Assembly: GCA_034620365.1 (NCBI GenBank)
Contig: JAQGEQ010000162.1
Location: forward strand, 124,001 to 188,000
DNA: 64,000 nucleotides
Direction: 5' to 3'
From: Pegea sp. RAD2-039
Lineage: Eukaryota; Chordata; Thaliacea; Salpida; Salpidae
Positions 954 through 62,880 of the stretch are shown here, piece after piece (the stretch's first letter is position 1; every line of letters starts with the position of its first letter). The notes under the pieces were generated by a model. That model was given only the letters and a program-made list of their open reading frames with translations, made no database searches and was not told where the DNA came from. A program made the position numbers and the translations under genes.

Positions 954-3530
954 TAAAGTAAATTATATACATTTCATAATCAAGCTTTTTCTGGCTTATA
1001 CTTTTAACTTCTAAAATTAAGTTTTGTTGATTTGTACTTATGAGCCAAAGATACCAATTAAACTGAATTGAAAGATAACTCAAGAACTCATTAATTGTAG
1101 TTTTATTATTACATTTAGATTTAGCAAAACCTCATAAAAGTTTAGACGAATTTCACAAGATATACACAGAAGATACTAAATGAAATTAATTAAATGAGCT
1201 TCTTTTACTTTAGCTTTGATTATATAAAGATCTGTTGATAATTTTACTTCTTTCACTGATAAATATTACATAATTTCTAATATAGAGTAAACACTAAATT
1301 TAATTCAATTATATGTTTTATTTAAATAATTTTCTCATTCATCTGATTACATCTAATTATACGATTGTATACAGCGAGAAATCTATACAAAAATTCAGTT
1401 CAACATCAAATAATAAAATATTACACATATACCAAACATAAAACCTCATTTGCTATTCTAATGTACTCGAATTTTTTTGGTCAAGCATTAGTTAATACAC
1501 CTTGTCAAAAAAATACGTTTGTCCCAACTTTTCTGTAAAGACACTTTCAGTAGTAGTGTATCAAGATAGAATGTAAGACTTGAAGGAAAAAAAGTATATG
1601 CAAATGAAAGACTGAAAATAAAAATGACAAGATGAATGTTATAATGATGGAACCATCGATTATAGCAGACAAATTTGTGAATGAATAAGCTATTGCAACA
1701 AACGAACATCTGGCTGCAATGTGATTGAGATTTGATTAGCGTGGAACTATTATTTATCTAGCTGTTTTCTTGCTTCATCTGCAGAATCGGTTTGTTTTGT
1801 TTCATAAAAGATGTTGATGAATGTCTTCAAAATTTACGTTCGTCTGCAAGTTAAAAAAACTGTTTGTTAAACTGTTTGTAATCAAATTTTTGTTTTTGAA
1901 TTCAAAATTTGATAAGTATTTCTAATTATTTTGATGTCTTGTAAATAAATAAAAACATTTTCTTCAAAATAAAGATAAAAATTAAATTTATTTAAAAATT
2001 GAAAAACAATTTGTGTAATTTGTGTTTTTAAAACTGAAATAAGTGAAATCAAGAAAAATTTTATTGGTCATTTAAATCTGTTTTCTCATTTGGTAAAATC
2101 AATAATAGAAAACAAACGAAAATTTGATGAAAAAACGCTTATTATCGGATCACAAATTTTTACAATTATTATAAAAATCATTTTATAAAAGTTTCTTGGA
2201 GTCTTAAACCAAAAAGCTTTTATTTATTTCAAGTTGAATTATTTATATTTACTTCTTAAAAAAACTTTGCAACAACAAAGTAGCAACATGAAAGTAGTGA
2301 CTTTGAAGTCAAAGAATTTAGCATCCAAATTCAATTCTTCGTTGATATTAGATGTTTGCTGGAGTCTTTCAAGATAAGATTATAAGAGGACTGCATCAAA
2401 ACAACAAATATTTTAATGAAAATCAATGAAACCTGAATAAACTACAGCAACTAATAAACGTTTAGATTTTCTCCTGTTGCATTCAGATATTCTCATCAGC
2501 TAACATTTGTCTAAATAGTTCAAATATCTTCATCATCTGCCTGATAAGTGAGATCAAATCTTAACCAACAAATCGATTAATCTTTAATTTACAAAGTACC
2601 TGATAATTACCATATTTTTAGGAAGATCTATTTGTTAAAAGCTTTATATTGTACCATAATCTTTAAGTTTGCTTCAAATCTTAGAAAAAGATTCGTAAAT
2701 ATCAGAATTCTGCTGGAATTTATAAATATATAGAAAACTGTGAAAACCCAAAAAATAATGTAACTGATTTAAATTCGAACTAACCTGAACAAACAACAGC
2801 AACTGAAAAAACGTCTGATTTTATCATTTTGTATTTAGACTTTCTCATCAGCCGAGATTTGTCAATCAAGTTCAGATCATCCACCATTAATTACAAAAGC
2901 TTTATATTTTACCAACAAATCCAGTAACCTTCAATTTACAAGTTTTGTTTTAAGATAATCAGTTATGTAACTCAAAATTTTTATCAAAATTTAAACTTGT
3001 AGCTGATGAAATAAATAGTTAAAAATGAGATTTAGTTTTTACTAAGAGTTGTTTATTCTTTAAAACTGACCAGCAAAGTTTGAATATTAGAAGAAAAATT
3101 TGGTTTCTTCGATTCCCTATTCAAAATCTCATCGAATTAAGGGTAAGTAGTTGTACTCTCATGTGACATACAAAACTAAAAATGTAGGATTCTGTGAAAA
3201 AAATCAATCATTAAAATAAATCACAAGATAGCGCTGTAGTAACAAATTACCTGACATTTAAAAAATGTCCTTTTATACCATCAAAAGTTGAAACATTTTC
3301 AAAAAGTTCATATATCTCCTTCAATTCCAGTATTGTGGAAAATCTAGCTTCCAAATCTCTCAGAAATTTCATTGATTTTCAATCTAATGCAAAATAAAAG
3401 ATCAAAATTAGTTGATCATCTCCAAAAGATTAGTTATCAGTTATAGCTTTACAGTTATATTATCATGAAAAATAGTTTCTGCTTAAGAAACAACTCAAAG
3501 AAGTTATTTAAATTTTACAAAATGGTGAGG
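954..3530. repeat. Duplicated block gamma, copy 1
   Basis: This AT-rich block is repeated at high identity at 17110-19690 and, with gaps, at 53560-55870, 30000-31825, 9490-10560, 34660-35830 and 59300-60085. Several copies contain frames over 60 codons, such as the minus frame at 1488-1709, but they start and stop differently between copies. Copies differ by internal deletions and by where they join other blocks. No RNA gene or transposon end was recognised. Confidence 0.85.
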
Positions 3531-5523
3531 AGGAATAGTGAGATATTTCCATGACTCACTTTCAAATCTTTTATCTATTACATTTTTTGTTTCAATTGAT
3601 TTTTTATTTGAATCTGAATTTTCTGAGATGGTCAATTGAGGAACAACAACTGGCCTTTGAGGGGGAGTAGTATTCTTGTTCTTAGATTTTACGAGTCTTA
3701 ATCGACGCCTAACAATTATTTTACCTTCTTTATTTTCTATTCTATTCTTAGTAGTATTATCTTTGGTTGAATCACTTTTATTTGATAAACTTTCCTTACC
3801 ATTGTAAATTGCTGATTCACTAGTTGGGGTGATTTGATTAGCAGTTGTTTCCCTCTTCGCTATATTCTCAATATGATCTTACAGATCTTGTTTCAAATCC
3901 ATTTACATTTCTTTTTGCAAAGAGTCACAGATGATCAAACCTCTAGGACTTAAAGCACTGTCAATTCTTTTGGCTGTTACATCTTTTGTTTCACAGATTT
4001 GCTTTGGATCTGAACTTTCTGAAACCGGCATACGGACTGTTTTCAAGTAACCTTTTTCAGTCTTATTTCTAGCCTCGTCATTTGTATCAGCTTTTGTAAC
4101 TGGGGTAACTTCTTCAATCTCTTCTTCATCATCGTCAATTATGAAAACAGCAGCCTTAGTTCGTTGGTGTTTTCTCCAATTATTGAGTATATCTCCTATA
4201 GTAGCTGGTTCACATTTCACAATATCTTTATTTAAGCTACTACTGTTTTGTGCGTCCTTCTTAACTTGACTATGTTAGTTTTTTCCTTCGCTACTTTCTT
4301 GAATCCCTGTATTGGCTAAATAGTTTAAAACATATTTAGCATATTGTTCAGACCAGCCAGATGTTGTTGGTTGCTCGTATTGGTTTCCAAAATAACTACT
4401 TAGGGCTAAGTGTTGAGATTGAGAGGTCTCACTTTTTTCTTCAGAAGAAAGTATTCCAGATTTGTTTTCTTTTTCTCAGACTGAATTTTCTTTTAGTTGT
4501 CTATCTGTTGATCAATTATCGCTTATGGGAGGTTTATATCAACCACCCAAGTGATTATGTACGGCTGAAGAGCTTTGTTTTGTTGTGAGTTTGTCTGAAT
4601 ACTTGGATGCTGTTTCGGTATTTTAAGGTTTTTTTGTTGTTGTTTAGTCAAGGTTCTAGAGCTTAATTTACCAGAATCCTTTTTAAATGTTACTCTAGTA
4701 AGCTCAACTGGTATTAATTTAAGATTTTGTTGTCTATCTTTGTTTTTCAAAAGCCTTGGATCTTTTCCATGTTTGATTAAAGTTGAGTTCCACTTAGCCA
4801 GTCTTAGTCCAGGTTTTCTTTTATCTACAGTTTGTTCGATGTTCTTTTTATCATGTGTTTTGCATGCCACAGTTTGAGGTGTTACATTTTTTTGATTTAG
4901 TTTACTTACAAATGGTTGTTTCGAAACTTTCTTATTAGCGTTTGCTTCTATATGGGTTTTTGAAAAATGAATGCTTGTATTCCTTTCTTTATCTCCTATC
5001 AATTCTTCCTTCTTGCGAGTAAATTTCTTCAAAATTTTAGGATTTAAAGGTTTCTTTGAGTTGTCAACAGAAGAGGTTATTTTAAATTCACTTTCATTAT
5101 TTGTTTTACTACACTCAGATGTTTCTGATGCTATTTGTGTTGACTTCGTGGAAGAAGGTTTACCCGATCTCGGCTTATATTGTAATTTCCAGACTGGAAT
5201 CGGCTTCTTCTGCAATGTCCTTAAGGAAGATGTGCTTAAGGTCGATTGATTCTTGTCTGTTTTGTCACTATTAAATGAGTTTTCCTGTGACAGGACACCA
5301 CAACTTTCTTTAATATAATTATATACTTGAAAATCAGGAGAATGATAAATCTCATTCTGCTTTCTTTGATTTTTATCTATTTCTAAAATAGATGTTATTG
5401 CTGACTGTTTAGTTTCATTTGTCTGAGACATATTTAAAGCACTCGTAGAAGCATGATCTGAAGTTGATACAGAGGTTTTCTCATCAGAATTGTGGGAAGA
5501 AAATGTTTCAAAGATGTTTTCTT
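3530..5523 (-). pseudogene. Broken repeat-containing gene of unknown family (kappa, copy 1)
   Basis: On the minus strand an open frame runs from 5523 (first ATG 5431) to 4523, then continues in shifted frames through 4220-3903 toward 3540. The product is hydrophilic, rich in Lys, Ser, Thr and Glu, with an acidic run IDDDEEEIEE. It has an internal repeat: a unit with ETKDV...KRI...CDSLQKE occurs twice about 130 codons apart. In-frame TAA codons interrupt the reading after EGKN, after LQKEM and after KQDL, and a frame change lies near 4540. The first two and the third stop also occur in the copy at 60111-62385, so they predate the duplication. The 3' part ends abruptly near 3530, where gamma-type sequence joins. 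I do not recognise the family. Unrecognised introns (GTAAAT and GTAAGA lie at two of the stops) are an alternative to pseudogene status. Confidence 0.55.
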
Positions 5524-33318: not shown

Positions 33319-33502
33319 CAAACACTTGTCAATAAAATAGTAGAGATTTTTGAGGTAATATTTGATTGAGAGTAACAGCAAGAGAACAAGCAAGTGATCT
33401 GTCAATAATTCAATCGTGTCATCATCTACTCAGTGATATTTACAAATTAATTCTGTTTTTTTTTTAAATTATTTTAATTAATTATCTAAAAATTTGGAAA
33501 AA

Positions 33503-33760
33503 GAAATGGGTCCAATACTACCGGTTAGGCTGTGACACTTATTTAGAGAAATGATCGGATGACTTTGTTAATATTCTGCTCAAAGTACTACAATAGAGAA
33601 AATTGCCTAAAGAAATCAGGTAGAACATTGAACCAATTAGAATCAGAAAGAAGTTCAAACATCTGATCATAAAACAGTGTACACAGCTCCTAACCTCATA
33701 CCGTCCACCATCTCAAGCCTCCTAGTAGCTGGATTACAAGCGCACGCCACAACGCCCGGC
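33503..33760 (-). ncRNA. 7SL/SRP-RNA-like element, copy 1
   Basis: Read on the minus strand, the 5' end GCCGGGCG-TTGTGGCGTG, then TGTAATCCAGCTACTAGGAG, follows metazoan 7SL RNA closely over ~50 bases. The 3' end CACAGCCTAACC...GGACCC also follows the 7SL 3' end and runs into five Ts (33498-33502), a Pol III terminator. The GTGGCGTGCGC stretch matches the internal A-box region of 7SL. These two ends make the Alu domain, which binds SRP9/14. The middle ~150 bases is AT-rich and lacks the helix 8 GGAA/AGCAGG motifs of the SRP54-binding S domain. It is therefore probably not a working SRP RNA but a pseudogene or 7SL-derived element. Confidence 0.6.
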
Positions 33761-34094
33761 GAAAATACGTTTTCGAAATAATATTTATACCTTTTTTCTT
33801 ACAATAATATTTCTCCTTAAACATCAATTTCCTAATTTCATTGCTTTTTGAATAATTACATAAATAAAAACTTGTTTTGTTCTTACTTATTTAATACAAA
33901 AAGAACTCTTAACTAAATTGCTGTTTTAGGTTATCGCACAATTAGTACTTGGAAGCAGCTGTCATCAGACATTGTCATCTTAAGATCACTCGCGTTGTTT
34001 AAGTAAAAGTTGAACTCATCTAATATTGCCAACATTACCATTTATAATTTTGATTTGTTTTCGTTTTCATAATATTAACTCTATAGGTATTATT

Positions 34095-34659: not shown

Positions 34660-37600
34660 TTATAAACATTTTATAATCAAGCTTTTTCTGGCTTATACTT
34701 TTAACTTCTAAAATTAAGTTTTGTTGATTTGTACTTATGAGCCAAAGATACCAATTAAACTGAATTGAAAGATAACTCACGAACTCATTAACCGTAGTTT
34801 TATTATTACATTTAGATTTACTAAAAACTCACACAAGATTAGAAGATTTTCACAAGGTATACACCGAAGATACTAAATGAAATTAATTAAATGAGCTTCT
34901 TTTACTTTAGCTTTGATTATATAAAGATCTGTTGATAAATTTACTTCTTTCACTGATAAATATTACATAATTTCTAATATAGAGTAAAGACTAAATTTAA
35001 TTCAATTATATGTTTTATTTAAATAGTTTTCTCATTCATCTGATTACATCTAATTATACGATTGTATACAACGAGAAATTTATACAAAAATTCATTTCAA
35101 CATCAATTAATAAAATATTTAACATATAGCAAACATCAAATCTCATTTGCTATTCTAATGTATTCGATTTCTCTTGTCCAACATTAGTTAATACACCTTG
35201 TCAAAAAATGCGTTTGTCCCAACTTTTCTGTAAAGACACTTTCAGCAGTAGTGTATCAAGGTAGAATGTAAGACGTAAAATAAAAAATTAGTATATGCAA
35301 ATAAAAGGTCAAATTGTTAAATATAATTAAATTAAATGTAAAGGAAAAAGTATTCATATGCAAATGAATAGCTACCTACTATTAATATCATCATTGATTA
35401 AATGGCTGCACATCAAAGTTCTTCAATTTGATAAATTCATTTCTTACAAACACTAAATCTGTATTTACCTGACAGATTTTGCAAGAAATGTTTCTAAAGT
35501 TTATCAACTGTGCTCCACTTTGCAAAGAAAGATTTGTAAATTTCAGATGTTTGCTTGATTATAAATAAAAAAAAAGGTTAAAAAAGGAAAATTCAACAAG
35601 TTCAGATATCTTCATCAACTCCAGTATTGTGGATAAAGTACCTTCAAAATCTCTCAGAAATTTCATTGATTTTCAATCTAATGAAAAATAAAAGATTAAA
35701 ATAAGTTGATCATCTCCAAAAGATTAGTTATCAGTTATAGTTTTACAGTTGTACCATCATGAAAAATATTTTCTGTTTAAGATACAACTCAAAGAAGTTA
35801 TTTAAATTTGACAAGAAGGTGAGGAGAAATATTCTCAGATGTAGAAAACGATTTTATTGATTTTGAAAATCAAATCTTCATCTGATTAAAGGATGATGTT
35901 AACAACTAAGACTAATAATCCTAAATTAAGAACTCAATGGTGACACACTATAAGAATTATCCAAAACAAACTTTCCGCCAAGAAATTTTTATCAAATGCG
36001 TTCTATCAAACAAAATAATTAAGATAAAATTGTATATAAACTAGTAGTTTGTAAAAGCTAAAAAAAAAACTGATTTTATATATTATCTGCATTTTTTAAA
36101 GCATTTTATCAAATTATTAAGAAATTATGATTTCTTCTAAAATTCAATCAAAACACACATTTGTATGAAAATAATGAAATTAAAAGAAATTGCTTTAGAA
36201 ACTAAACCCTTAATTAATATACTATTATATAAAAGCTTATTTTTATAGAAAGTTAATAAAACAGCTTTAATTATTTTTTATTATCAGTATATTTAGAATA
36301 AAAAAATGTTTGTTTCAATTAAATAGTTCAATTAACTAAACTGAAAAGTTAAATTGATCTATGACAAAATTTAGTTATATATAAAAATGATTTAAAACTA
36401 AATGACAAATGTTTAAGATGTTGATATGAAATATCTGTCTAAAAGAAAAAGTAGTACGATTAATTATTCAAAATTTATATGTTTGTCATTTAAAGTTATT
36501 AAGACAAGTGAAGTTATATTAGCTTTTTATTGAAAAAAGCAGTTTATTTAAATTAAAAAACTAAGCACTGATATGCTAAAGTATTCATTTTAAATTATAT
36601 CGTTTTCTATTGATAGAACCTAGTACGAAGGTTGTTGGTTAAAAAGATTTTTAATTTATATTATTTTTATTATAAAGCTCTCATAAGTTAGGAACAGGTT
36701 TTTTCATTTGTCTTACTACTTTTACTAATAAAATTACTCTTTTAAAACATCAAACTGAAACACTAATGATTTTGAAAAAATTTGCGCTAAATGACCGTAG
36801 AATATTTTTAGATTAATTTAATTTAAATTAATTTAAATAATAATTAATTTAATTTTAATTTAATTAATTTTTATATTCTTAGATTAAGATTTCAAATAGT
36901 TCTTAAAACTATCAAAAGATTCCACTATAAACCAAATCCCTATTTTGGTTAAGTGGCTCCTCTGCCTTCTAAAATTTAAACACTTTAAAATTTTAATCAG
37001 ATTAGGAAGTGATTTAGAGTCAATGCTTTTCTTGACAATTTGAAGAGAGAATCATGAGACAGTTGTTATGTTTAGATACGCTAACAGTTGTATGCTAGTT
37101 GATCATGTGATCAGCTAATGTTGTGTTTATAATTGCAAGATTTTTATCAGTGGCATAGTAGTCTGATGATTTCTATAGCGCCTCTACTGGTTACTATTTT
37201 TCTGGTCGTTATGCTTCGTTGCTTACAAATTATTTCTGTTTTACGTGGTTAACAATTGTTTACAAAAACAGCTTTATACGTTGTGCCTGAAATAAACGAG
37301 TGTTTACAAGATTTTGTCGCAATCGAAGAAACGTTTTCGGGTTGATGAAACATATGATGTTGGTTACATCAGCAATTAAGTCAATATTCAAAAAATGAAG
37401 CTTAGAGAAGAGTTTTGCCTCAATAATGTAATGGGACTAGAAGAAAGACTAATGATATCACTAGTGGAGATTGCTAGAAATTTTTGTAAAATGTTGTAGA
37501 AATCATCAGTTGTTGTAGAAATGTTTACTTCCAATTTTAATTCAGAAACTTAAAAAAAAAAAATTTTAAGGACTTATTTAGAGGTTTAGAAATTAAGAAA

Positions 37601-39857: not shown

Positions 39858-41218
39858 GGTATATGCAAATAAAAGGTCAAATTGTTAAATATAATTAAAT
39901 TAAATGTAAAGGAAAAAGTATTCATATGCAAATGAAAGGCTACCTACTATTAATATCATCATTGATTAAATGGCTGCACATCAAAGTTCTTCAATTTGAT
40001 AAATTCATTTCTTACAAACACTAAATCTGTATTTACCTGACAGATTTTGCAAGAAATGTTTCTAAAGTTTATCAACTGTGCTCCACTTTGCACAGAAAGA
40101 TTTGTAAATTTCAGATGTTTGCTTGATTATAAATAAAAAAAAAGGTTAAAAAAGGAAAATTCAACAAGTTCAGATATCTTCATCAACTCCAGTATTGTGG
40201 ATAAAGTACCTTCAAAATCTCTCAGAAATTTCATTGATTTTCAATCTAATGAAAAATAAAAGATCAAAATAAGTTGATCATCTCCAAAAGATTAGTTATC
40301 AGTTATAGTTTTACAGTTGTACCATCATGAAAAATATTTTCTGTTTAAGAAACAACTCATAGAAGTTATTTAAATTTGACAAGAAGGTGAGGAGAAATAT
40401 TCTCAGATGTAGAAAACGATTTTATTGATTTTGAAAATCAAATCTTCATCTGATTAAAGGATGATGTTAACAACTAAGACTAATAATCCTAAATTAAGAA
40501 CTCAATGGTGACACACTATAAGAATTATCCAAAACAAACTTTCCGCCAAGAAATTTTTATCAAATGCGTTCTATCAAACAAAATAATTAAGATTTACATT
40601 TATATAAACTAGTTATTTGTAGAAGTCAGAACTGCAAAACTGATTTTATATTTTATCTGCATTTTTTAAAGCATTTTATCAAACTATTAAGAAATTATGA
40701 TTTCTTCTAAAGTTCAATCAAAACACACATTTGTATAAAAATATAGAAATTAAAAGAAATTGCTTTAGAAACTAAAACTAAAATTAATTACTACTATATA
40801 AAAGCTTATTTTTATAGAAAGTTGATAAAACAGCTTTAATTATTTTTTATTATCAGTATATTTAGAATAAAAAAATGTTTGTTTCAATTAAATAGTTCAA
40901 TTAACTAAACTAAAAAGTTAAATTGATCTATGACAAAATTTAGTTAAATATAAAAATGATTTAAAACTAAATGACAAATGTTTAAGATGTTGATATGAAA
41001 TATCTGTCTAACAGAAAAAGTAGTAAGATTAATTATTTAGAATTTATATGTTTGTCATTTAAAGTTATTAAGACAAGTGAAGTTAAATTAGCTTTTAATT
41101 GAAAAAAACTGTTTATTTAAATCAAAAAACTAAGCACTGATATGCTAAAGTCTTTATTTTAAATTATATCTTTTTCTAATGATAGAACGTAGTAACAAAT
41201 TGTTGGTTAAAAAGGTTT
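39858..41218. repeat. Gamma/delta blocks, copy
   Basis: Near-identical to 35290-36650, a ~1.3-kb match that looks among the youngest in the window. Ends at 'gttggttaaaaag', the same point reached by the copies near 11880 and 36640, after which an unrelated zinc-finger exon begins. Confidence 0.85.
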
Positions 41219-41346
41219 TCAATTTTTACATACGTCATATACAATCTGCTCATCAACATGCAAACTACGAATGCCAAATATGTAAGAAATCATATTCTTA
41301 TGATACTAACTTACGTAGGCACATTCGAACTGTGCATCAAAAGTAG
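41215..41346 (+). CDS. C2H2 zinc-finger exon (last 1.5 fingers)
   Basis: The frame encodes YIRHIQSAH, the second half of one finger, then CQICKKSYSYDTNLRRHIRTVH, a complete C-x2-C-x12-H-x4-H finger, then QK and TAG at 41344. In other proteins such tandem fingers bind DNA. The reading stays open back through the repeat junction at ~41215, so no clear acceptor can be named. The 3' end of a zinc-finger gene appears to be welded to the edge of a delta block. It may be a terminal exon or a stranded fragment. Confidence 0.6.
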   Translation, partial: VFNFYIRHIQSAHQHANYECQICKKSYSYDTNLRRHIRTVHQK

Positions 41347-48902: not shown

Positions 48903-49272
48903 AAAACAACCCTTTTAGAAGACAAAAAATTCCGAGTTTAAAGCCGGAGTTGGAACCTTGTAGGCAGTTTGCAAATCCTAAGTGTCAATCAGTGTCATTC
49001 CTGAGATGCCACCTGAGAGGTTTAGTTGTTAGATCTTCTTTACCGCTGTTCAGCTAGTTGGCGTGGAGAATGGAATCCTGATGCATCGGCAACAAATCGT
49101 TCTCTATAATTTCTACCCTGACTTTGTGTTTTACAGAAGCCAAAAGTTAAATTAAAAAATTGGATGAAAAAAAAGACTAAACTTGTAATTTTTTTAAAGT
49201 CTGAAATTACAAAGGTGAAAATTATTTACAAAATTTAATAGAAATGTTATAATCAATTTGAAAATAGAAAAA

Positions 49273-49547
49273 GAAATGGGTCCAATCTTATTGGTTAGGC
49301 TGTGACACTTGTACTGATGTACTGATAGGGGTATAGAATATAAAAGACCCCTGTCGAAGCATCACAATGCAGAGAACTAACTGAGGATATTTGAGGATTT
49401 AGCAAGCTAGATAAAGCTATAGAGAATTATCATAAGGCTGCAAGAATACTCGACAACCATACAGTGCACACAGCTTCTAACCTCATACCGTCCACCATCT
49501 CAAGCCTTCTAGTGGCTGGATTTCAAGCACACGCCACAACGCCGGGC
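49273..49547 (-). ncRNA. 7SL/SRP-RNA-like element, copy 3 (diverged)
   Basis: On the minus strand the first ~105 bases closely follow copy 1 (GTTGTGGCGTGTGCTTG, then GAGATGGTGGACGGTATGAG), and the last ~37 (GTGTCACAGCCTAACC) do too, ending in a T5 terminator (49268-49272). The ~130-base interior is unrelated to copy 1 and contains a GGGGT...ACCCC hairpin and a doubled ATCAGTAC. Conserved ends around a variable middle suggest that only the Alu-domain parts were maintained or copied. Confidence 0.6.
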
Positions 49548-49639
49548 AAAAGGAAATTTTGAATATTTTTTTAAACTTAGAAATACTAAACAGTGATATC
49601 ACTTTCACAAAGAAAATAAAAATTTCTGAAAGAAAAATC

Positions 49640-50330
49640 CCAGTCACGTGCTCTTAAAAAACCATCAGCTATTAAATCTGTATAAGCTCGCCTTCGTATA
49701 GGTTTATCCAGGTTGATCATATGATTAGCTATTTTTATTTTTGTTTTTTCAAGGGTTTCATTACTTACACAGTTGAATGATTCTTACCAGTATAGTGCCT
49801 CTAATGGCTACTACTATTTGGGTTGCCTTATTTATATGGGTGAAATTTAAGCTGTATGCTCGTGGTGGTTTAGAGTTAGTTTTTTCAGTAGCTAAGTATT
49901 TACATCATTATTATAAAGGTATCCTATTTGATCAGCTAATGTTGTGTTCATAGTTGCAAGCTTTTTATCAGTGGCAAAGTAAGCTAATGATTTCTATAGC
50001 GCCTCTACCGGTCACTAATGGTTAGGTTGTCACGCTTCGTTCCTTACAAATGTTTTCTGAGTCACGTGCTTATAAAATGTTTATAAAAACGGTTTAGCAT
50101 GAGTAGAAAGAACGTGTGGTTGATAGTAAAAAGGAATTTGAAAAGTTTTTTTGCAATTATAGCAGCGCTGTTAGGCTGATGAAACAGAAGGTCTCCATGA
50201 CATTAACAATTAAGTAACTTTTAATTCAAAAGTCTGAAGAAGATTTTTTCCGTCTACAATATACTAGAAGTAGAGAAAGATTCATTTCATCACTATGGAG
50301 GGAGCTATGAGGGTGCTACTGATTGTTGTT
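49640..50330. repeat. Diverged epsilon-like repeat, two tandem parts
   Basis: Two stretches (around 49700-49900 and 49930-50330) carry the epsilon core 'tatag(c/t)gcctcta' and the following 'cgcttcgttccttacaaatg', but with many changes. They look like older relatives of the epsilon blocks. No EF-hand exon. Confidence 0.55.
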
Positions 50331-50545
50331 TTATGTTTTTAAAAGATAACTTCTTGTTTTTGGATTTACAAATACCAAGTTTGAAAAAAGCAAAATAGCA
50401 AATCTTGTTCCATTTGTAATGTTTGATTTGTAGGATTTAAAATTATTAGTATTAATAAGACTATTAATATTAGTATAATTATTTGTGTGATAATTGTACT
50501 TCAATAAAAACTGAAAAAAGTTAAGAGTAGACTTAAAGTAGAAAA

Positions 50546-50617
50546 CGAAATGGGTCTAATCCTATTGGTTAGGCTGTGACACTTGTTAGATGTAGTGATA
50601 GGGCCACAATACCAGGC
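50546..50617 (-). ncRNA. Internally deleted 7SL-like element, copy 4 (~72 bp)
   Basis: The minus strand reads GCCTGGTATTGTGGCCCTAT, a 7SL 5' end, then passes directly to ACAAGTGTCACAGCCTAACC and GACCCATTTC, the 3' end, followed by a T4 run. The whole interior is gone. This keeps the two strands of the Alu domain and loses the S domain, as in the origin of Alu and B1 SINEs, although here the core is far shorter. Confidence 0.5.
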
Positions 50618-50934
50618 GACAGTAATTTATCAAAATAATTTTTGAATCAATGTATTTATATATATTAATTATAAACAACTGTTTCAATTAATAAGCAACT
50701 AAAGAAATGAAAGAATTTGAAACATTTTATTAATTTCAAGCATTTTAAAGTTTTTTTTCTAATAAATTATGTAAACAAAAGGAATTGTCAACTTCAATGT
50801 AAACTTCATCAACAGATACTGTTGATATCTTCATTGATTAAATGGCTGCACATCAAAGTTCTTCAATTTGATAAATTCATTTCTTACGAACACTAGGGTA
50901 ACAAGTCCAGTACGACAAAAGCTGCTCTGTACCA

Positions 50935-51920: not shown

Positions 51921-52399
51921 TTTACTCTTGATCTTTAAATTTCTTAACTGTGATTGATAACTTTACAACCACACAAGTTCACCAGTGACGTCATCGATTC
52001 AATTCGATGTAATACTGTTACAATTGAGAAAGCTTTGACACACATTCAGCATATTTACTTTGGTCACGTGATGGATAACGTTCTTGACGCGTAAATGGTA
52101 GTGGAGTTGATGACGTCGATGATAATGAATTTTGTTAGTGCGTTTCACTTCATTGGGAGTGTAGGGAATGGTCTTCCTGTCAAATTGATACTCAATTGAT
52201 GCTAATGATGACGTCACAAACACTTGTCAATAGAATAGTAGAGATTTTTGAGGTAATAATTGATTGAGAGTAACAGCAAGAGAACAAGCAAGTGATCTGT
52301 CAATAATTCAATCGTGTCATCATCTACTCAGTGATATTTACAAATTAATTCTGTTTTTTTTTAAATTATTTTAATTAATTATCTAAAAATTTGGAAAAA

Positions 52400-52657
52400 G
52401 AAATGGGTCCAATACTACCGGTTAGGCTGTGACACTTATTTAGAGAAATGATCGGATGACTTTGTTAATATTCTGCTCAAAGTACTACAATAGAGAAAAT
52501 TGCCTAAAGAAATCAGGTAGAACATTGAACCAATTAGAATCAGAAAGAAGTTCGAACATCTGATCATAACACAGTGTACACAGCTCCTAACCTCATACCG
52601 TCCACCATCTCAAGCCTCCTAGTAGCTGGATTACAAGCGCACGCCACAACGCCCGGC
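52400..52657 (-). ncRNA. 7SL/SRP-RNA-like element, copy 2
   Basis: A duplicate of copy 1 at very few differences, including the 5' GCCGGGCG, the GTAATCCAGCTACTAGGAGG loop, the 3' CACAGCCTAACCGG and the T5 terminator (52395-52399). Same degenerate interior. The near-identity reflects the whole-block duplication, so it does not by itself show selection. Confidence 0.6.
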
Positions 52658-60110: not shown

Positions 60111-62385
60111 TCAATTTTTTTTCGAATTCTCAGGCCTAACTTTTCGACATAGTTTTTGTACTTTTGTGGAATCAACAAATGTTGCTGCTTGATTAGGACT
60201 TGTTGTACAGGTCATTAGCTCTTTATTATTTGTTTCAGCATGAACACACTGTTGAATACTAATACTATGAGAAACTTCAATTGGTTATTCAATGGAAGTA
60301 GTTTCACTATATTCAGATTTTATCACTTTTTCATCTTCTACAATTGTTTCATCATTTGTATCTTCCTTATTATTTGAAGCTGCAGAATCTTCAGTGAAAG
60401 CTGTCCAATCACTTTCCTGTACTAAAGTTTCTTCTTCATTTGAATTCGTTGATTCAAAACTCGAAGTGATTTGATTAACATATGTTTCGTTTTCGATTAG
60501 ATTGTCATTTAGATTATCCTTCAAATCAAATTCCACTTCTTTTTGTAAAGAGTCACAAGTGATCAGATTTCCATGACTTGACTCACTTTCAATTCTTTTA
60601 TCTATTACATCTTTTGTTTCAATTGATTTTTTATTTGAATCTGAATTTTCTGAGATGGTCAATTGAGGAACAACAACTGGCCTTTGATGGGGAGTAGTAT
60701 TTTTGTTCTTAGATTTTACGAATCCTAATCGACGCCTAACAATTATTTTACCTTCTTTATTTTCTATTCTATTCTTAATATTATTATCTTTGGTTGAATC
60801 ACTTTTATTTGATAAACTTTCCTTACTATTGGAAATTGCTGATTCACTAGTTGGGGTGATTTGATTAGCAATTGTTTCCCTCTTCGCTATATTCTCAATA
60901 TGATCTTACAGATCTTGTTTCAAATCCATTTACATTTCTTTTTGCAAAGAGTCACAGATGATCAAACCTCTAGGACTTAAAGCACTGTCAATTCTTTTGG
61001 CTGTTACATCTTTTGTTTCATAGATTTTCTTTGGATCTGAACTTTCTGAAACCGGCATACGGACTGTTTTCAAGTAACCCTTTTCAGTCTTATTTCTAGC
61101 CTCGTCATTTGTATCAGCTTTTGTAACTGGGCTAACTTCTTCAATCTCTTCTTCATCATCGTCAATTATGAAAACAGCAGCATTAGTTCGTTGGGGTTTT
61201 CTCCAATTATTGAGTATATCTCCCATAGTAGCTGGTTCACATTTCACAATATCTTTATTTAAGATACTACTATTTTGTGCGTCCTTCTTAACTTGACTAT
61301 GTTAGTTTTTTCCTTCGCTACTTTCTTGAATCCCTGTATTGGCTAAATAGTTTAAAACATATTTAGCATATTGTTCAGACCAGCCAGATGTTGTTGGTTG
61401 CTCGTATTGGTTTCCAAAATAACTACTTTGGGCTAAGTGTTGAGATTGAGAGGTCTCACTTTTTTCTTCAGAAGAAAGTATTCCAGATTTATTTTCTTTT
61501 TCTAAGACTGAGTTGTCTTTTAGTTGTCTATCTGTTGATCCGTTATCGCTTATGGGAGGCTTATACCAACCACCCAAGTGATTATGTATGGCTGAAGAGC
61601 TTTGTTTTGTTTTGAGTTTGTTTCAATACTTGGATGCTGTTTCGGTATTTTGAGGTTTTCTTTGTTGTTTAGTTCAGGTTCTAGAGCTTAATTTACTACA
61701 ATCCTTTTTAAATGTTACTCTAGTAAGCTCAACTGGTATTAATTTAAGAATTCGTTGTCTATCTTGATTTTTCAAAAGCCTTGGATCTTCTCCATGTTTG
61801 ATTAACGTTGAGTTCCACTTAGCCAGTCTTAGTCCAGGTTTTCTTTTATCTAAGTTTGTTCGATGTTCTTTTTATCATGTGTTTTGCATGCCACAGTTTG
61901 AGGTATTCCATTTTTTGGATTTTGTTTACTTACAAATGGTTATTTCGAAACTTTCTTATTAGCGTTTGCTTCCATATGGGTTTTTGAAGAATAAATGCTT
62001 GTTTTTATTTCTTCATCTCATATTAATTCTTCGTTTTTGCGAGTAAATTTCTTCAAAATTTTAGGATTTAAAGGTTTCTTTGGGTTGTCAACAGAAGAGG
62101 TTATATTAAAGTCACTTTCATTAGTTGTTTTACTACACTCAGATGTTTCTGATGCTATTTGTGTTGACTTCGTGGAAGAAGGTTTACCCGATTTCGGCTT
62201 ACATTGTAATCTCCAGACTGGAGTCGGCTTCTTCTGCAATGTCCTTAAGGAAGATGTGCTTAAGGTCGATTGATTCTTGTCTGTTTTGTCACTATTAAAT
62301 GAGTTTTCCTGTGACAGGACTGCACAAATTTTTCCAATATAATTATATACTTGAAAATCAGGAGAATGATGAATCTCATTCTGAT
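60111..62385 (-). pseudogene. Broken repeat-containing gene (kappa, copy 2)
   Basis: Extends the kappa gene 3' beyond copy 1 by ~450 bases, to a TGA at 60111. Reading continues in one frame over 61577-60111 with in-frame TAA codons after EGKN, LQKEM, KQDL and TTSIE. The internal repeat is clear: ETKDVTAKRIDSALS (60930-61060) and ETKDVIDKRIESESS (60540-60662), each followed by CDSLQKE and, further on, NQIT. The second unit has no stop where the first has TAA, so ancestral sense codons can be guessed. Upstream of 61577 there are one-base indels against copy 1 (near 61675 and 61855). The block ends at 62385 in theta DNA, cutting off the 5' part. Family unknown. Confidence 0.55.
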
Positions 62386-62880
62386 TCAGATACTAAAAAA
62401 GTGTTTGCAGCACTAAAGTTAAACTTTTTTCAATAAAGCTAATAACCAATGTCAATTGTTGTTATTAACACTTTACCAACAAAGTCTAATACAATCTTTG
62501 ATCAAATGAAAGTAATAATTAAAATAATTAATCTGATCCCAAAATGCATTTAAATTAAGATACTATAGTGGCTTAGTTTTAAAAAGAATTCTGCAAGATC
62601 AGTTAGATTAACACAATTACATAAGTTCTTCATCTACATTCAAAAATTCAATTAAAAATATAAAAGATTAGTAATTATAGTTTGAAAAGAGTGTAAAATG
62701 ACTGCCTAAAGGCAAATGATATAATAATTTCATGTCTTAGAATTATAGCATAGCTTTTTTATATTGCATAACAGTAAATAATGTCAAAAAAGTTTTCACA
62801 ATTTTTAATTTAACTAAATAATAGCTACTTTATATAGTTTTATATATTTTATTTTATATTTTTAATTAAAATTTTAATTG
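62385..62880. repeat. Theta upstream piece, first of a tandem pair
   Basis: Matches 63508-64000 and 27069-27560 at high identity. The same ~490-base piece therefore flanks theta copy c on both sides. Confidence 0.8.

What the first reader, a model, noticed from the sequence alone, without database searches (positions are those of the whole stretch)
33503..33760. 7SL-derived elements with intact Alu-domain ends and replaced interiors
Copies at 33.5, 49.3 and 52.4 kb (all minus strand) share both ends of 7SL RNA and a Pol III T-run, but the SRP54-binding middle is missing. Between copies 1 and 3 the ends are nearly the same while ~130-150 interior bases are unrelated. Decay of an ordinary pseudogene would not spare just the two ends. 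7SL-derived SINEs are known from primates, rodents and their relatives, and I recall a report in hagfish; an invertebrate family would be new to me.
Basis: partly seen in the sequence, partly recalled or inferred. Interest (0 to 1): 0.85.

Follow-up and report, generated by a model that had tools for sequence, protein, structure and literature searches.

The report
Tandem genes for shortened 7SL RNAs
A small invertebrate genome carries a cluster of dozens of gene copies made from the RNA of the protein-secretion machinery, which keep its ribosome-touching end and a shared promoter-like block while the signal-reading half is gone; they look like RNA genes rather than jumping elements or simple wreckage, although nobody has yet shown that they are transcribed.

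Summary
The 7SL likeness is real: Rfam Metazoa_SRP matches 33500-33760 and 52397-52657 above its cut-off, 49270-49547 below it. The S domain is not recognisable. One detail was wrong: the 33.5 and 52.4 kb copies are 99% identical throughout; the 49.3 kb copy has the unrelated interior.

At least 16 class A and 24 full-length class B copies plus fragments were found, nearly all in one duplicated cluster on a few contigs, besides four ordinary SRP RNA genes. They are not a dispersed SINE family.

They look like genes. All 16 A and 21 of 24 B copies carry one upstream box at exactly -64 to -44 (three A copies with one mismatch), with a TATA-like stretch at -29, about the spacing of U6 genes here. 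A and B share this block, the Alu domain and the 3' end; interiors and farther flanks match no better than shuffles. In B the box never varies and the Alu 5' domain varies less than the flank. Internal TTTT in class A and modest constraint elsewhere speak against.

Best reading: tandem Pol III-type genes for 7SL-derived Alu-domain RNAs. Transcription, SRP9/14 binding and function are inferred.

The parts
33500..33760 (-). Class A 7SL-derived element (261 nt), Alu-domain ends with a replaced interior
   Evidence: RF00017 76.7 bits; 16 class A copies in the genome
33804..33824 (-). Upstream box ATGTTTAAGSAGAAAWATWAT at -64..-44 of the copy above
   Evidence: Exact match (C72:157804-157824)
33782..33789 (-). 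TATA-like stretch (TATAAATA) starting at -29
   Evidence: Position from then on the class A consensus; sequence
49270..49547 (-). Class B element of subtype B2 (278 nt): full length, without the upstream box, damaged Alu 5' core
   Evidence: RF00017 49.9 bits; upstream; not among box sites; 6 changes in nt 16-45 vs B1 consensus
50544..50603 (-). Class D remnant: about 15 nt of the 5' end joined to the 3' end
52397..52657 (-). Class A 7SL-derived element (261 nt), 99% identical to the 33.5 kb copy
   Evidence: RF00017 75.8 bits
52701..52721 (-). Upstream box at -64..-44 of the copy above
   Evidence: Exact match (C72:176701-176721)

Best explanation
A tandemly amplified family of RNA genes of RNA polymerase III type, descended from the 7SL (SRP) RNA gene by DNA duplication. 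An ancestor kept the Alu domain (5' core plus helix 5 closed by the 3' end) and had an upstream promoter (box at -64, TATA-like stretch at -29); the S domain was lost, and two classes (A, B) now carry unrelated interiors. The cluster grew by segmental duplication with birth and death: box-less (B2, B'), truncated (C) and deleted (D) copies look like pseudogenes beside intact ones. Most likely mechanism (inferred): the transcripts fold into an Alu-type domain, bind the cell's SRP9/14, and act on ribosomes or compete for SRP9/14 as a translational regulator or decoy, as proposed for BC200 RNA (recalled; BC200 papers seen only as a listing); the interior would add a class-specific partner or target. 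Shown here: anatomy, ancestry, shared promoter-like block, preserved pairing, low variation of box and Alu 5' domain in B1. Inferred: transcription, RNP formation, function. The confidence given is for the gene-family claim; the SRP9/14 or ribosome step alone is about 0.35.
For: Box at -64..-44 in 16 of 16 A (13 exact, 3 with one mismatch) and 21 of 24 full-length B copies, with only one other exact match in the genome (the pattern was made from these copies). A and B align without gaps over -64..-16, 38 of 49 identical, 0 of 500 shuffles reach the score, while -220..-65 (136 of 500) and interiors (256 of 500) do not align beyond chance. Neither the real SRP nor the U6 promoter resembles the block, so it is not copied from today's SRP genes. 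B1, 19 of 21 copies: variable sites 0/21 in the box (p 0.004) and 7/87 in nt 1-87 (p 6e-4) vs 32/120 in the flank. A, 12 of 16 copies: 2/87 in nt 1-87 (p 0.006) and 6/126 in the interior (p 0.03) vs 35/300. 5' domain pairs kept in 192/192 (A) and 252/252 (B1) cells, 30/36 in box-less B2. A T-run of 4 or more at the 3' end in 16 of 16 A and 22 of 22 B copies looked at. One SRP9 and one SRP14 gene were found.
Against: No expression data. Internal TTTT in 16 of 16 A and 4 of 21 B1 copies; TTTT alone may end transcription here (2 of 4 U6 genes read). The B1 interior (33/140) and 3' end (8/43) are not significantly less variable than the flank; nor is the A 3' end or the A block -64..-1. Single helix 5 pairs are broken in 1-6 of 21 B1 copies and one pair in all 21; RNAalifold z is -0.15 for B1 and -2.4 for A (60 column shuffles). 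Box-less B' copies show no erosion in nt 16-45. Element and flank distances do not correlate, so gene conversion may explain part of the uniformity. Copies are recent and not independent.
Confidence: 0.6

Rival explanations
1. Non-functional 7SL pseudogenes carried along in segmental duplications. A chimeric or S-domain-deleted pseudogene arose in the cluster, and copies look alike because the duplications are recent and gene conversion homogenises them.
For: The whole cluster is a patchwork of duplicated blocks; class A flanks differ little (pi 0.027); many copies are damaged; interiors and 3' ends of B1 show no significant constraint; element and flank distances do not correlate.
Against: Invariant box and slow Alu 5' domain in B1; promoter block shared by A and B while everything around it is unalignable; A and B keep four fixed differences in nt 1-87, so they are not homogenised with each other; the truncated class C remnant has pi 0.055 in the same domain vs 0.010 in the A and B subsets.
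Confidence: 0.27
2. Short-transcript variant: Pol III starts at the -64/-29 promoter but stops at internal TTTT or soon after the 5' domain, so the product is an RNA of about 90 nt (5' Alu core only) and the rest is passive.
For: Low variation is clearest in the box (B1) and nt 1-87; TTTT at nt 87 in 11 of 16 A copies.
Against: 17 of 21 B1 copies have no internal TTTT, and 5 of 16 A copies lack the one at nt 87; 3' ends still pair with the 5' part in 302/304 (A) and 363/399 (B1) cells.
Confidence: 0.08
3. A 7SL-derived SINE family.
For: 7SL-derived with the S domain gone, as in known SINE1 families (PMC7245038 passages); an A-run 35-36 bp downstream in 11 of 16 A copies; one dispersed B-like fragment on C22.
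Against: Copies are clustered, share flanks within a class and carry upstream DNA to -64; no tail directly after the element and none of 22 B copies has the A-run.
Confidence: 0.04

Closest known systems
4.5SH RNA genes of mouse-like rodents (PMC10137851, passages)
   Same: 7SL-derived small RNA genes in tandem repeats of several kb with a TATA-like stretch near -30.
   Different: 4.5SH is about 100 nt, has hundreds of copies in 4-5 kb units and A/B boxes; here 261-279 nt, at least 37 box-bearing copies, irregular spacing, an extra box at -64, both 7SL ends and two unrelated interiors.
BC200 RNA of primates (recalled; papers seen only as listing)
   Same: Alu (7SL left-end) domain followed by non-7SL sequence.
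   Different: BC200 is a single retroposed gene with unique sequence at its 3' end (recalled); here a cluster made by DNA duplication, with the non-7SL sequence inside and the 7SL 3' end kept.
SINE1 families: Alu, B1, hagfish SINE1-1_EBu (PMC7245038, passages)
   Same: 7SL-derived with the S domain missing.
   Different: Not dispersed; upstream promoter-like block copied with the element; 3' end of 7SL kept instead of a LINE-type tail.
Metazoan SRP (7SL) RNA genes, Rfam RF00017
   Same: Alu domain and 3' end; class A passes the Rfam gathering score.
   Different: No recognisable S domain, different upstream sequence; at least four normal SRP RNA genes exist elsewhere in this genome.

Membership tests
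Metazoan SRP RNA gene | Alu domain with helices 3, 4 and helix 5 closed by the 3' end | tested here: met
   (A 192/192 and 302/304 cells; B1 252/252 and 363/399)
Metazoan SRP RNA gene | S domain (SRP19/SRP54 site) | tested here: not met
   interior vs real SRP interior 368 of 500 (A) and 33 of 500 (B) shuffles reach the score; alignment
7SL-derived SINE (SINE1) | 7SL-derived head | tested here: met
7SL-derived SINE (SINE1) | Dispersed, independent insertions | tested here: not met
   cluster contigs except one fragment on C22 (capped lists; C94 and C189 surroundings hardly read)
7SL-derived SINE (SINE1) | Target-site duplications | not tested
   No survey was made
7SL-derived SINE (SINE1) | Poly-A or LINE-derived tail | tested here: inconclusive
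   None directly after the element; A-run at +35/36 in 11 of 16 A and 0 of 22 B copies
Pol III gene with external (type 3-like) promoter | Proximal element near -60 and TATA near -30 at fixed distances | tested here: met
   Box -64..-44 and TATA-like at -29; U6 here -61/-30, -61/-32, -55/-26 in 3 of 10 loci measured; box sequence differs from U6
Pol III gene with external (type 3-like) promoter | T-run terminator and none inside | tested here: inconclusive
   3' T-run in 16/16 A and 22/22 B; internal TTTT in 16/16 A, 4/21 B1
Functional 7SL-derived RNA (BC200 / 4.5SH kind) | Stable transcript, SRP9/14 binding or regulatory effect | not testable with these tools
   No RNA or binding data; one SRP9 and one SRP14 gene found

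The most novel reading that the evidence does not exclude
An invertebrate has evolved its own class of Alu RNPs: a cluster of several tens of 7SL paralogues with a dedicated promoter in which the S domain was replaced by exchangeable interior modules, so that SRP9/14-Alu particles carrying different interiors regulate translation, independently of SRP and of any SINE.
Probability: 0.3. Interest if true: 0.8.

Novelty: new variant of a known kind. Interest (0 to 1): 0.57.

Why it matters
In the paper I looked at most on this point (PMC7245038, passages), well-supported 7SL-derived SINE families are confined to Euarchontoglires and hagfish. A 7SL-derived RNA gene family in an invertebrate that grew by DNA duplication rather than retroposition, with its own upstream block and two unrelated interiors, would be an independent experiment in turning 7SL into a new RNA. 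It would help separate the Alu domain's value as an RNP and ribosome module from its value for retroposition, and the cluster carries its own partial controls (box-less and truncated copies).

Tried and rejected
SINE reading: disfavoured for want of dispersal and because upstream DNA is copied along. Full S domain: not found. Interior as another known RNA: besides Metazoa_SRP only mir-1268 matches at E 0.11, inside the Alu part and far below its cut-off. Promoter shared with U6 or the real SRP genes: no similarity beyond shuffles. Other genes with the -64 box: with up to 2 mismatches 73 hits in all, 20 for the reversed control; three one-mismatch sites outside the cluster showed no element downstream by eye. 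The one orphan exact box, C282:36082, has B1 upstream sequence that breaks off before +1.

Corrected on the way: my first class A conservation figures (flank 112/300 variable sites, 13 copies) were inflated by one copy with a rearranged upstream (C282:228907); without it the flank is 35/300 (12 copies), and the report uses that. In six A copies on C72 alone the contrast is weak (flank pi 0.029, interior 0.021, 5' domain 0.010). One search's pairwise figures (A element 1.48% vs flank 4.89%, 66 pairs; B 3.4% vs 7.9%, 112 pairs) include the rearranged copy and, for B, the box-less B2 copies, so I do not lean on them. Class C as a control is mixed: its 5' domain (pi 0.055) is above its adjacent DNA (0.019-0.023) but near its farther downstream flank (0.044) and below its upstream flank beyond -100 (0.22) (5 copies). 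Structure support for the interiors is weak.

Proteins: 20 of 111 window ORFs of at least 60 codons were scanned against Pfam; one zinc finger passed curated cut-offs. tRNA scan of the window: none. Plasmid DNA search: nothing. Organism: no tool names it. A search on assembly figures returned no paper. Papers on such a family: among the rows shown no title or abstract start reports an invertebrate 7SL-derived family (most lists were cut; the library lacks most subscription journals). I saw passages of PMC7245038, PMC10886601, PMC6555955, PMC8447722 and PMC10137851, all others as listings only.

Full report
WHAT WAS CHECKED. The window is C72:124001-188000 of a 105.7 Mb, 387-contig genome; it is 23-31% G+C in 4 kb blocks. 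Rfam's Metazoa_SRP model matches at 33500-33760, 52397-52657 (above gathering) and 49270-49547 (below), all minus strand. The genome also has four full-length SRP RNA genes among the candidates scored (26 of 347), three on C258 and one on C1, at 256-263 bits. The elements are therefore extra to a normal SRP RNA set.

CORRECTION TO THE OBSERVATION. The 33.5 and 52.4 kb copies are one class (A), 99% identical over all 261 bases, inside one duplication with about 18.9 kb spacing. The 49.3 kb copy belongs to another class (B). A and B share nt 1-87 (83 of 87) and about 41-48 nt at the 3' end; their interiors do not align better than shuffled sequence (256 of 500 shuffles reach the score).

CENSUS. 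Class A: 16 copies. Class B: 24 full-length copies, of which 21 (B1) carry the upstream box and 3 (B2) do not, plus 6 lacking the first 15 nt (B') and one dispersed fragment on C22. Class C: 13 near-full and 3 partial matches on C72, C282 and C94; that C keeps only the 5' domain was seen in the 5 copies read. Class D, internally deleted: 3 in the part of C72 that I could read. Counts are lower bounds, since the tool scored 40 of 86, 91 and 65 candidates, and C282/C280 could partly be other haplotypes; C72 alone has 9 A and 17 B1 copies. On C72 every copy listed is on the minus strand.

UPSTREAM BLOCK. Upstream of A and B1 lies ATGTTTAAGSAGAAAWATWAT at exactly -64 to -44. It has 35 exact matches genome-wide: 13 A copies, 21 B1 copies and one orphan; the other 3 A copies have one mismatch. 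The pattern was made from these copies, so what counts is that it is exact at only one other place and is missing from B2 and B'. A and B align without gaps over -64..-16 (38 of 49; 0 of 500 shuffles reach the score) while -220..-65 does not align (136 of 500). A TATA-like stretch begins at -29. In three of the ten U6 loci fetched I measured a different box (ACAAAC...) at -61, -61 and -55 and TATA at -30, -32 and -26. The geometry is that of an external Pol III promoter (established knowledge of U6-type promoters); the box sequence resembles neither U6 nor the real SRP promoters.

CONSTRAINT. B1, 19 of 21 copies: variable sites 0/21 in the box (p 0.004), 7/87 in nt 1-87 (p 6e-4), 33/140 in the interior and 8/43 in the 3' end (both not significant), against 32/120 in flank -220..-101. 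A, 12 of 16 copies (3 lacked enough flank, 1 dropped for a rearranged upstream): 2/87 in nt 1-87 (p 0.006), 6/126 in the interior (p 0.03), 3/48 in the 3' end and 5/64 in -64..-1 (not significant), against 35/300. Partial controls: the class C remnant (5 copies) has pi 0.055 in the 5' domain against 0.019-0.023 in adjacent DNA, 0.044 farther downstream and 0.22 farther upstream, while the same domain has pi 0.010 in the A and B subsets. The three B2 copies, which belong to one duplication lineage, carry 6 changes in nt 16-45, where each B1 copy has 0 or 2, but none in nt 46-87. B' copies, also box-less, have 0-1 changes in nt 16-45, a result against the simple rule. Element and flank distances do not correlate in either class (the A figure includes the rearranged copy), so some homogenisation by conversion is likely.

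FOLD. The 7SL 5' domain pairs in 192 of 192 (A) and 252 of 252 (B1) cells but 30 of 36 in B2; helix 5 in 302 of 304 (A), 363 of 399 (B1) and 54 of 57 (B2) cells. One helix 5 pair (70/-28) is G-C in 3 and G-U in 1 of 4 real genes and A-U in all 16 A and 20 of 21 B1 copies, a change on both sides. Against this, single helix 5 pairs are broken in 1-6 of 21 B1 copies, one pair (72/-30) in all 21, and RNAalifold gives z -0.15 for B1 and -2.4 for A (60 column shuffles).

TERMINATION. A T-run of 4 or more ends 16 of 16 A and 22 of 22 B copies looked at. Internal TTTT occurs in 16 of 16 A and 4 of 21 B1 copies. Two of four U6 genes read have TTTT at the RNA end and no other T-run of four for about 40 bases, and the real SRP genes end in TTTCTTTT, so internal TTTT could truncate A transcripts. 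This is the main weakness for class A.

SETTING. The cluster is a patchwork of duplicated blocks, mostly about 85-98% alike. One zinc-finger ORF (41149-41343) is the only clear domain among 20 of 111 ORFs scanned.

INTERPRETATION. DNA duplication, not retroposition, made most of this family, because upstream DNA and flanks are copied with it. Two classes that share only the -64 block, the Alu domain and the 3' end, with an invariant box and a slow Alu 5' domain in the better-sampled class, are best read as RNA genes under selection for expression and for the Alu 5' domain. One SRP9 and one SRP14 gene were found whose products could bind such RNAs. A BC200-like action on translation or competition for SRP9/14 is the most likely use; that step is inference.

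NOVELTY. PMC7245038 (passages) places 7SL-derived SINEs in Euarchontoglires and hagfish; PMC10886601 (passages) says the same in short; PMC10137851 (passages) describes the 7SL-derived, tandemly repeated 4.5SH genes of rodents, the nearest parallel in arrangement. No invertebrate counterpart appeared in the rows shown. I rate it a new variant of a known kind. That the animal is an invertebrate rests on its 105.7 Mb genome (no vertebrate genome is that small, recalled) and an animal-type SRP RNA.

Noticed in passing
L062 (C22:132900-133800): One B-like fragment (nt 35-228 of the query) outside the cluster, with a deletion in the 5' domain and no 7SL 3' end.
   Followed up: partly
L070 (C282:35600-36250): An orphan copy of the -64 box with B1 upstream sequence that breaks off before +1.
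   Followed up: partly
window 41149-41343: Short plus-strand ORF with one C2H2/BED-type zinc finger.
   Followed up: no
window 3507-5521 and 60288-62392: Two copies of a minus-strand, S/N/K-rich coding-like region without a known domain.
   Followed up: no
window 35377-35455, 39945-40023, 50817-50895: A 79-nt stretch repeated at 95-100% identity, unusually even for this cluster; it lies upstream of the class D remnant.
   Followed up: no
window 49180-49700: Splice-acceptor-like TTTTTCTTTCAG upstream and TTTGTAATTTCAG downstream of the B2 element, which may lie in or near a transcribed gene.
   Followed up: no
C32:1261123-1282814 and C39:921691-940379: U6 and U2 snRNA genes lie interspersed in mixed clusters.
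   Followed up: no
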